DNA of 64,000 nucleotides from the NCBI GenBank assembly GCA_937863995.1, contig CALMIK010000046.1, positions 62,001 to 126,000 on the forward strand. The letters are read 5' to 3'. A program made the translations under genes and the position numbers. The notes under the pieces are model-generated. The model made no database searches and was not told the origin of the DNA. It saw nothing but the letters and a program-made list of their open reading frames with translations. Of the stretch, positions 42,905 through 43,336 are shown one piece after another (within the stretch, counting starts at the first letter, position 1; every line of letters starts with the position of its first letter). The DNA comes from an uncultured Chelatococcus sp. GTDB lineage: Bacteria > Pseudomonadota > Alphaproteobacteria > Rhizobiales > Beijerinckiaceae.

Positions 42905-43336
<432 letters not shown>

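What the first reader, a model, noticed from the sequence alone, without database searches (positions are those of the whole stretch)
43282..43304. The guide's seed recurs behind a perfect type I-C PAM, 3 bp from a cas5c-facing -35 hexamer
TTC (43282-43284) precedes TTATTTTATCA, identical to guide positions 1-11. Position 12 mismatches, 13-16 match, 17 and 18 do not. Positions 12 and 18 are flipped-out bases in type I R-loops, so mismatches there cost little. The PAM side faces TTGACA at 43278-43273 on the minus strand. A match of PAM plus 11 bases is 14 fixed positions, about 4 to the power -14 per site at equal base usage, so chance is unlikely even allowing for AT-rich DNA. Partial pairing would let Cascade bind without full cleavage and silence its own operon; when Cascade is lost the operon would be released.
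Basis: partly seen in the sequence, partly recalled or inferred. Interest (0 to 1): 0.92.

Follow-up and report, generated by a model that had tools for sequence, protein, structure and literature searches.

The report
CRISPR guide RNA targeting own operon
A lone, worn CRISPR repeat next to this bacterium's CRISPR genes encodes a guide that partly matches the control region of the same gene cluster; 33 related clusters carry equivalent pairs that changed in step, so the CRISPR complex very probably silences its own genes (or a small toxin gene beside them), a known kind of control in a subtype where I found no report of it.

Summary
TTC plus the ten Cascade-contacting seed positions of the guide (43442-) occurs once in the 3.53 Mb genome, at 43282-43295, 157 bp from the guide, with TTGACA 3 bp beyond the PAM. 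In 129 type I-C cas3-cas5c gaps from this and other genomes the same search finds 34 guide/target pairs behind TTC; exchanging partners between loci gives 0.64 on average. Guides differ between loci, yet each matches its own target. Matching follows the R-loop rhythm: positions 1-5 and 7-11 match, 6 and 12 do not, 13-16 mostly match, nothing beyond 17 exceeds chance. In close relatives (Cas5c about 98% identical) guide and target changed in concert at four positions. This is the signature of CreA/CreR crRNA-like repressors, reported for types I-B, I-E, V-A (CreR) and I-B, I-F (CreTA). A strong rival comes from relatives: the target is always upstream of the guide on the guide's strand, and in roughly two thirds of loci a small ORF lies between, so the ancestral module may be a CRISPR-repressed peptide toxin-antitoxin. 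No expression data exist.

The parts
43409..43441 (+). Degenerate, solitary CRISPR repeat (psi-repeat), antisense to the cas operon; last 11 nt differ at one base from the array repeat
   Evidence: folds as a hairpin, -11.1 kcal/mol; array repeat -11.8
43442..43472 (+). Guide (spacer-like), TTATTTTATCAAGTTATTTCGTACCTCAATC
43473..43508 (+). 3' hairpin after the guide (10 pairs + 4), probable 3' end or handle of the guide RNA; a hairpin at this place recurs in most of the 34 relatives
   Evidence: window z = -6.5; mean z = -3.4; 25 of 34 below -2
43282..43284 (+). PAM TTC of the target
   Evidence: TTC is the only PAM enriched among 64 triplets, 34 loci against 39 for the 63 others together
43285..43300 (+). 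Target: matches guide 1-11 and 13-16 (seed 43285-43295)
43273..43278 (-). TTGACA, candidate -35 of the cas5c-facing promoter, 3 bp from the PAM
   Evidence: sequence; no canonical -10; TTGAC 1-3 bp beyond the PAM also in L017, L043, L112, L134, L165
42900..43209 (-). Broken GIY-YIG-fold gene: reading frame stops at 43035-43033 (codon 59, a tryptophan in every aligned relative) and frame is lost further on; intact copies sit at the same place in other cas loci
43343..43438 (+). Short ORF MRRRFLKRSAKPFHISPDGCRPCRAPRGERG between target and psi-repeat, no Shine-Dalgarno; possible relic of the small peptide gene seen here in relatives
   Evidence: coding status unsupported
42221..42889 (-). cas5c, first intact gene downstream of the candidate promoter
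40467..42224 (-). cas8c
39517..40470 (-). cas7c
38846..39514 (-). cas4
37815..38849 (-). cas1 (start estimated from the profile match)
37515..37805 (-). cas2
35220..37310 (-). CRISPR array, at least 31 identical repeats GTCGCCCTCCGCGTGGGGGCGTGGGTAGAAAC (limits approximate)
43517..45784 (-). cas3

Best explanation
The + strand element 43409-43508 encodes a crRNA-like regulator (psi-repeat, guide, 3' hairpin) that is loaded into the cell's own type I-C Cascade. Cascade recognises TTC at 43282 and pairs with 43285-43300 (guide 1-5, 7-11, 13-16), but cannot complete an R-loop, so Cas3 is not licensed and the complex acts as a roadblock. It sits against the TTGACA that faces GIY(broken)-cas5c-cas8c-cas7c-cas4-cas1-cas2 and lowers transcription of that operon: CreR-type autorepression, released when Cascade is scarce, titrated by crRNAs or inhibited. 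Because the target lies between the divergent guide gene and the cas promoter, the guide may repress its own transcription too. Shown here: the sequence match, its uniqueness, the family-wide covariation and pairing pattern, and the anatomy. Inferred: expression of the guide, Cascade loading, which promoter is repressed, and the physiology.
For: Only site with PAM and full seed in the genome; about 5e-5 expected in the gap. Across 129 gaps, 34 pairs with TTC against 39 for all 63 other triplets together, and 0.64 (max 3) with permuted partners. Match rates by position, with 6, 12 and 13+ not used for selection: 1-5 about 1.0, 6 0.26, 7-11 0.88-1.0, 12 0.12, 13-16 0.68-0.85, 18+ chance. Own-target seed matches 9.6/10 against 2.9/10 for others' targets. 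Concerted change of guide and target at positions 3, 4, 5 and 8 between L137 and L138, whose Cas5c are each about 98% identical to L136's. No such pair upstream of cas3 in 80 loci. All I-C genes present, cas3 and the Cascade subunits open. Cas side: consensus -35 3 bp from the PAM and cas5c the first intact gene. Several relatives have no ORF between target and guide and only cas5c downstream: L118, L136-L138. The pairing set 1-5 + 7-11 behind TTC is that shown to be required for CreA (PMC8501985).
Against: No transcript, binding or reporter data. The -10 is poor. In all 34 loci the target is upstream of the guide on the guide strand, also where the module runs away from cas5c; there the target-to-ORF distance is nearly constant (70-76 nt in six of the seven that carry the peptide ORF) while the distance to cas5c varies from 3 to 127 nt. 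This points to the module's own promoter as the primary object. Neither of the two congeners in the collection keeps an intact pair: G002 has a relic guide without a target in its genome, G001 has no element, so the control is dispensable in this genus.
Confidence: 0.6

Rival explanations
1. CreTA/CrePA-like addiction module: Cascade plus guide keep a toxin silent, and loss or inhibition of Cascade releases it. In the window the toxin would be the GIY-YIG-fold ORF behind the target promoter, the short + strand ORF at 43343, or a non-coding CreT RNA.
For: In about two thirds of the 34 loci a small ORF, usually with a Shine-Dalgarno sequence, lies between target and psi-repeat on the guide strand. 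One family (MKRRYYALRL..GRFTIALELDLEPP) shows coding constraint, differences by codon position 85/41/149. Others are short hydrophobic peptides (L056, L112, L124, L125, L162, L165, L176). The target is always upstream of the guide, as in PcreTA of Halobacterium hubeiense.
Against: In the window the guide-side ORF has no Shine-Dalgarno and resembles the family only in its first residues; the GIY gene is broken. GIY genes in 15 other loci have no detectable guide pair. No toxicity data for any of these ORFs.
Confidence: 0.25
2. A decayed module: an ancestral toxin-antitoxin or regulator whose payload is gone; guide and target still match but no longer matter.
For: The GIY gene is broken, there is no good small ORF, and the relic guide without target in G002 shows that decay happens in this genus.
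Against: Perfect 1-11 and 13-16 match with mismatch at 12, and a -35 exactly beside the PAM; G002's orphan guide and repeat have drifted visibly while this pair still matches.
Confidence: 0.13
3. Chance similarity in AT-rich DNA.
For: The gap is richer in A+T (48% GC) than the window (65% GC).
Against: About 5e-5 expected; single site in the genome; 34 loci with the same kind of pair against 0.64 permuted.
Confidence: 0.01

Closest known systems
CreR (cas-regulating RNA; Liu et al. 2023 Cell Host Microbe, cited in PMC12948488, PMC13131331, PMC12737573)
   Same: Solitary crRNA-like element in the cas locus, partial seed match to a cas promoter, expected cas autorepression without cleavage
   Different: CreR is reported for types I-B, I-E and V-A; this one is type I-C (Cas5c as processing enzyme), in the cas3-cas5c gap, divergent to the operon, with a single psi-repeat and a 3' hairpin. 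The primary paper was not held, so its own survey could not be checked.
CreTA (Haloarcula hispanica and Halobacterium hubeiense type I-B; Acinetobacter type I-F; PMC8501985, PMC9458426, PMC10097628)
   Same: psi-repeat plus guide pairing at 1-5 and 7-11 behind TTC in a promoter region; target upstream of the module; H. hispanica CreA also has one psi-repeat and a terminator
   Different: No tRNA-sequestering mini-ORF or known CreT in the window; relatives here have small peptide ORFs of about 26-60 aa
CrePA (protein toxin with KilA-N domain; reviewed in PMC12737573)
   Same: A CRISPR-repressed protein-coding gene next to a crRNA-like antitoxin is one possible reading of the relatives
   Different: No KilA-N protein seen here; the gene behind the target in the window is a broken GIY-YIG-fold gene

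Membership tests
CreA/CreR-type crRNA-like guides | Ectopic degenerate repeat followed by a spacer-like guide | tested here: met
   43409-43472; the 3' 11 nt of the repeat differ at one base from the array repeat; hairpin kept
CreA/CreR-type crRNA-like guides | Pairing limited to 1-5 and 7-11 plus a short extension, no full protospacer | tested here: met
   Window 1-11 and 13-16; family profile over 34 loci
CreA/CreR-type crRNA-like guides | Functional PAM (TTC) at the target | tested here: met
   TTC enriched, 34 loci against 39 for 63 other triplets; TTC also reported for a type I-C system (abstract of PMC8406640)
CreA/CreR-type crRNA-like guides | Guide-target covariation between relatives | tested here: met
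   Cross-match 9.6 vs 2.9 of 10; L136-L138 concerted changes
CreR (cas autorepressor) | Target lies in the promoter of the cas operon | tested here: inconclusive
   Consensus TTGACA 3 bp from the PAM faces cas5c, but no good -10 and no transcript data
CreR (cas autorepressor) | cas expression rises when guide or Cascade is removed | not testable with these tools
   needs a strain and a reporter
CreTA | A toxic RNA or peptide gene under the targeted promoter | tested here: inconclusive
   Window: only an ORF without Shine-Dalgarno and a broken GIY gene; relatives: small ORFs in about two thirds of loci; toxicity untested
CrePA | KilA-N domain protein toxin under the targeted promoter | tested here: inconclusive
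   No such gene seen in the 627-bp gap by reading its ORFs; the gene there is of GIY-YIG fold; no dedicated KilA-N search was run
GIY-YIG nucleases (the adjacent gene, intact relative in G002) | GIY-YIG catalytic domain fold | tested here: met
   AlphaFold2 model pLDDT 86; best solved match I-TevI catalytic domain Z 7.9, 82 residues, 2.7 A; UvrC GIY-YIG domains follow. Sequence profiles only marginal (Pfam E 0.05-0.2); catalysis untested

The most novel reading that the evidence does not exclude
Type I-C cas3-cas5c gaps carry a widespread, so far undescribed family of CRISPR-repressed peptide toxin-antitoxin modules (small basic 'MKRRYYALRL..ELDLEPP' peptides and short hydrophobic peptides, each controlled by its own crRNA-like guide). 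The window shows a member that lost its toxin and was left as a pure cas autorepressor.
Probability: 0.3. Interest if true: 0.78.

Novelty: new member of a known kind. Interest (0 to 1): 0.6.

Why it matters
It extends RNA-guided self-control of CRISPR to type I-C, one of the most common subtypes. It gives a ready set of 34 natural guide/target pairs, with concerted changes between near-identical systems, that makes the rule 'pair 1-5 and 7-11, stop before cleavage' testable in many hosts. Any anti-CRISPR against type I-C Cascade would be expected to release these promoters, so the modules could sense attack. If the small ORFs are toxins, they form a new group of CRISPR-guarded addiction genes.

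Tried and rejected
Chance match: rejected. Module upstream of cas3: searched in 80 loci, none with TTC. Other copies of the target in the genome (a regulon): no second site with PAM and full seed; three with one mismatch, not followed up. Target of the relic guide in G002: none with PAM and full seed in that genome. Related DNA on plasmids: no match for the gap. Rfam: no family matches the gap. Sigma-70 and intrinsic-terminator consensus scans of the gap: nothing found. The GIY-like protein has no NCBIfam or PDB sequence match and no Foldseek hit below E 0.001; only the structural second look shows the fold. Papers on CreR/CreTA in type I-C: none found among held papers. Shmakov et al. 2023 (recalled from memory as a survey of CRISPR-derived regulatory elements) is not held and the primary CreR paper, Liu et al. 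2023, was not read, so an earlier report in their surveys cannot be excluded.

Full report
What is there. The window carries a complete type I-C locus on the minus strand: cas3 (45784-43517), cas5c (42889-42221), cas8c, cas7c, cas4, cas1, cas2 (profiles) and an array of at least 31 identical repeats. In the 627-bp gap between cas3 and cas5c, on the plus strand, lie a degenerate repeat (43409-43441), a guide (from 43442) and a strong hairpin (43473-43508). The stated match is exact: TTC 43282-43284, then guide positions 1-11, mismatch at 12, match at 13-16, mismatch at 17 and 18; TTGACA on the minus strand 3 bp beyond the PAM.

Is it chance? The 11-mer occurs twice in the 3.53 Mb genome, in the guide and in this site. 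TTC plus the ten seed positions 1-5 and 7-11 occurs once; three sites have one mismatch. A first-order model of the gap itself expects about 5e-5 occurrences in it, and 9e-5 with the AT-rich core as the model.

Comparative test. I gathered type I-C cas5c loci from related and public genomes, oriented them, and cut the cas3-cas5c gap: 168 distinct loci, 129 scanned (gap at least 60 bp, or cas3 not in the locus). I then looked for any guide preceded by a repeat-3'-end-like 12-mer that matches at least 9 of the 10 seed positions of a site behind a given trinucleotide. TTC: 34 loci, the window included; all 63 other triplets together: 39. Pairing guides with the gaps of other loci gives 0.64 loci on average, at most 3 in 100 permutations. 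The modules occur in 33 of 79 gaps of 150 bp or more, 0 of 38 gaps of 60-149 bp, and 0 of 80 regions upstream of cas3. Hosts include Alpha-, Beta- and Gammaproteobacteria (record titles).

Pairing pattern. Over the 34 pairs the match rate is 0.97-1.0 at positions 1-5, 0.26 at 6, 0.88-1.0 at 7-11, 0.12 at 12, 0.68-0.85 at 13-16, 0.50 at 17 and near chance from 18 on; positions 6, 12 and beyond were not used for selection. This is the 6-nt rhythm of a type I R-loop, with pairing that stops before completion. In Halobacterium hubeiense CreA exactly positions 1-5 and 7-11 were shown necessary by single and compensating mutations, with PAM TTC (PMC8501985).

Covariation. Each guide matches its own target at 9.6 of 10 seed positions and other targets at 2.9. 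L137 and L138 each have Cas5c about 98% identical to that of L136; between L137 and L138, guide positions 3, 4, 5 and 8 changed and the target changed to the same letters at the same positions, while the -35 and the sequence after the guide stayed. L060 and L159 changed together at 4, 16 and 17. Within the window's own genus only two other genomes were available: G002 keeps a recognisable but drifted guide and no target anywhere in its genome, and G001 has no such element. So the module can be lost.

Anatomy across loci. On the guide strand the target is upstream of the guide in 34 of 34 loci. A hairpin follows the guide in most (25 of 34 with z below -2). In 23 loci the module reads with cas5c, in 11 against it. 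In the sense-oriented group a TTGAC-like hexamer often begins 1-10 bp past the PAM. In roughly two thirds of loci a small ORF, usually with a Shine-Dalgarno sequence, lies between target and psi-repeat. One family, in L052, L060, L071, L080, L082 and L159, ends in -ELDLEPP/I or similar and is under coding constraint: differences at codon positions 1/2/3 among five members are 85/41/149. Others are short hydrophobic peptides. In the antisense group the target-to-ORF distance is 70-76 nt in six of the seven loci with the peptide ORF, while the distance to cas5c runs from 3 to 127 nt. L118 and L136-L138 have no such ORF, and only cas5c follows.

What the window member does. Its target-to-repeat distance (107 nt) is like that of an ORF-less locus (L039, 103) and shorter than that of most ORF-bearing ones. 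The only guide-side ORF (43343-43438) lacks a Shine-Dalgarno and resembles the peptide family only in its first residues. On the PAM side a perfect -35 faces cas5c. Between them lies a gene whose relatives occur between cas3 and cas5c in 15 other loci and whose predicted structure (from the intact copy of G002) is a GIY-YIG nuclease fold (I-TevI catalytic domain best, Z 7.9). Here it is broken by an in-frame stop at codon 59 and a later loss of frame; in G001 it is also broken. The first intact gene behind the promoter is cas5c. I therefore favour CreR-like autorepression (0.6), with a toxin-antitoxin reading at 0.25 and a decayed relic at 0.13.

Known or new. CreR autorepression is reported for I-B, I-E and V-A (PMC13131331; PMC12948488); CreTA for I-B and I-F (PMC8501985, PMC10097628); CrePA with a KilA-N protein (PMC12737573). 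No held paper that I found describes either in type I-C, but the primary CreR paper and the survey of CRISPR-derived regulatory elements could not be read. I file the window element as a new member of the CreA/CreR kind. The small-peptide modules of relatives may be a new variant.

Limits. All evidence is sequence-based. The repeat filter and the 9-of-10 cut make 34 a lower bound and fix matches at seed positions by selection, so positions 6, 12 and 13-17, the PAM comparison and the permutation test are the unbiased evidence. Related species count more than once. The -10, transcript ends and Cascade loading are inferred.

Noticed in passing
window 42900-43209; L021, L022, L023, L025, L058, L061, L065, L070, L077, L086, L088, L105, L116, L152: A small GIY-YIG-fold gene (about 100 aa, consensus [25 protein letters not shown]) sits between cas3 and cas5c in 16 type I-C loci, alpha to gamma; broken in the window and in G001. 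No curated family matches it convincingly.
   Followed up: partly
L052, L060, L071, L080, L082, L159 (variants L017, L019): Conserved 26-32 aa peptide (MKRRYYALRL..GRFTIALELDLEPP) between target and psi-repeat with third-codon-position bias; candidate CRISPR-repressed toxin.
   Followed up: partly
L056, L112, L124, L125, L162, L165, L176: Short hydrophobic peptides, usually with a Shine-Dalgarno sequence, between the target and the guide; they resemble single-helix membrane peptides.
   Followed up: no
L021 (G002), antisense to cas, between cas3 and the GIY gene: Relic guide (TTGTTTTTTCAAATGATC) behind a worn repeat, with no PAM-plus-seed target left in its genome.
   Followed up: yes
L045: A GIY-like match in the cas3-cas5c gap on the opposite strand to the cas genes.
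   Followed up: no
window 46002-46247 and 46789-47034: Two neighbouring ABC-transporter ATP-binding genes share a 74% identical stretch; a likely duplication in a transporter cluster.
   Followed up: no
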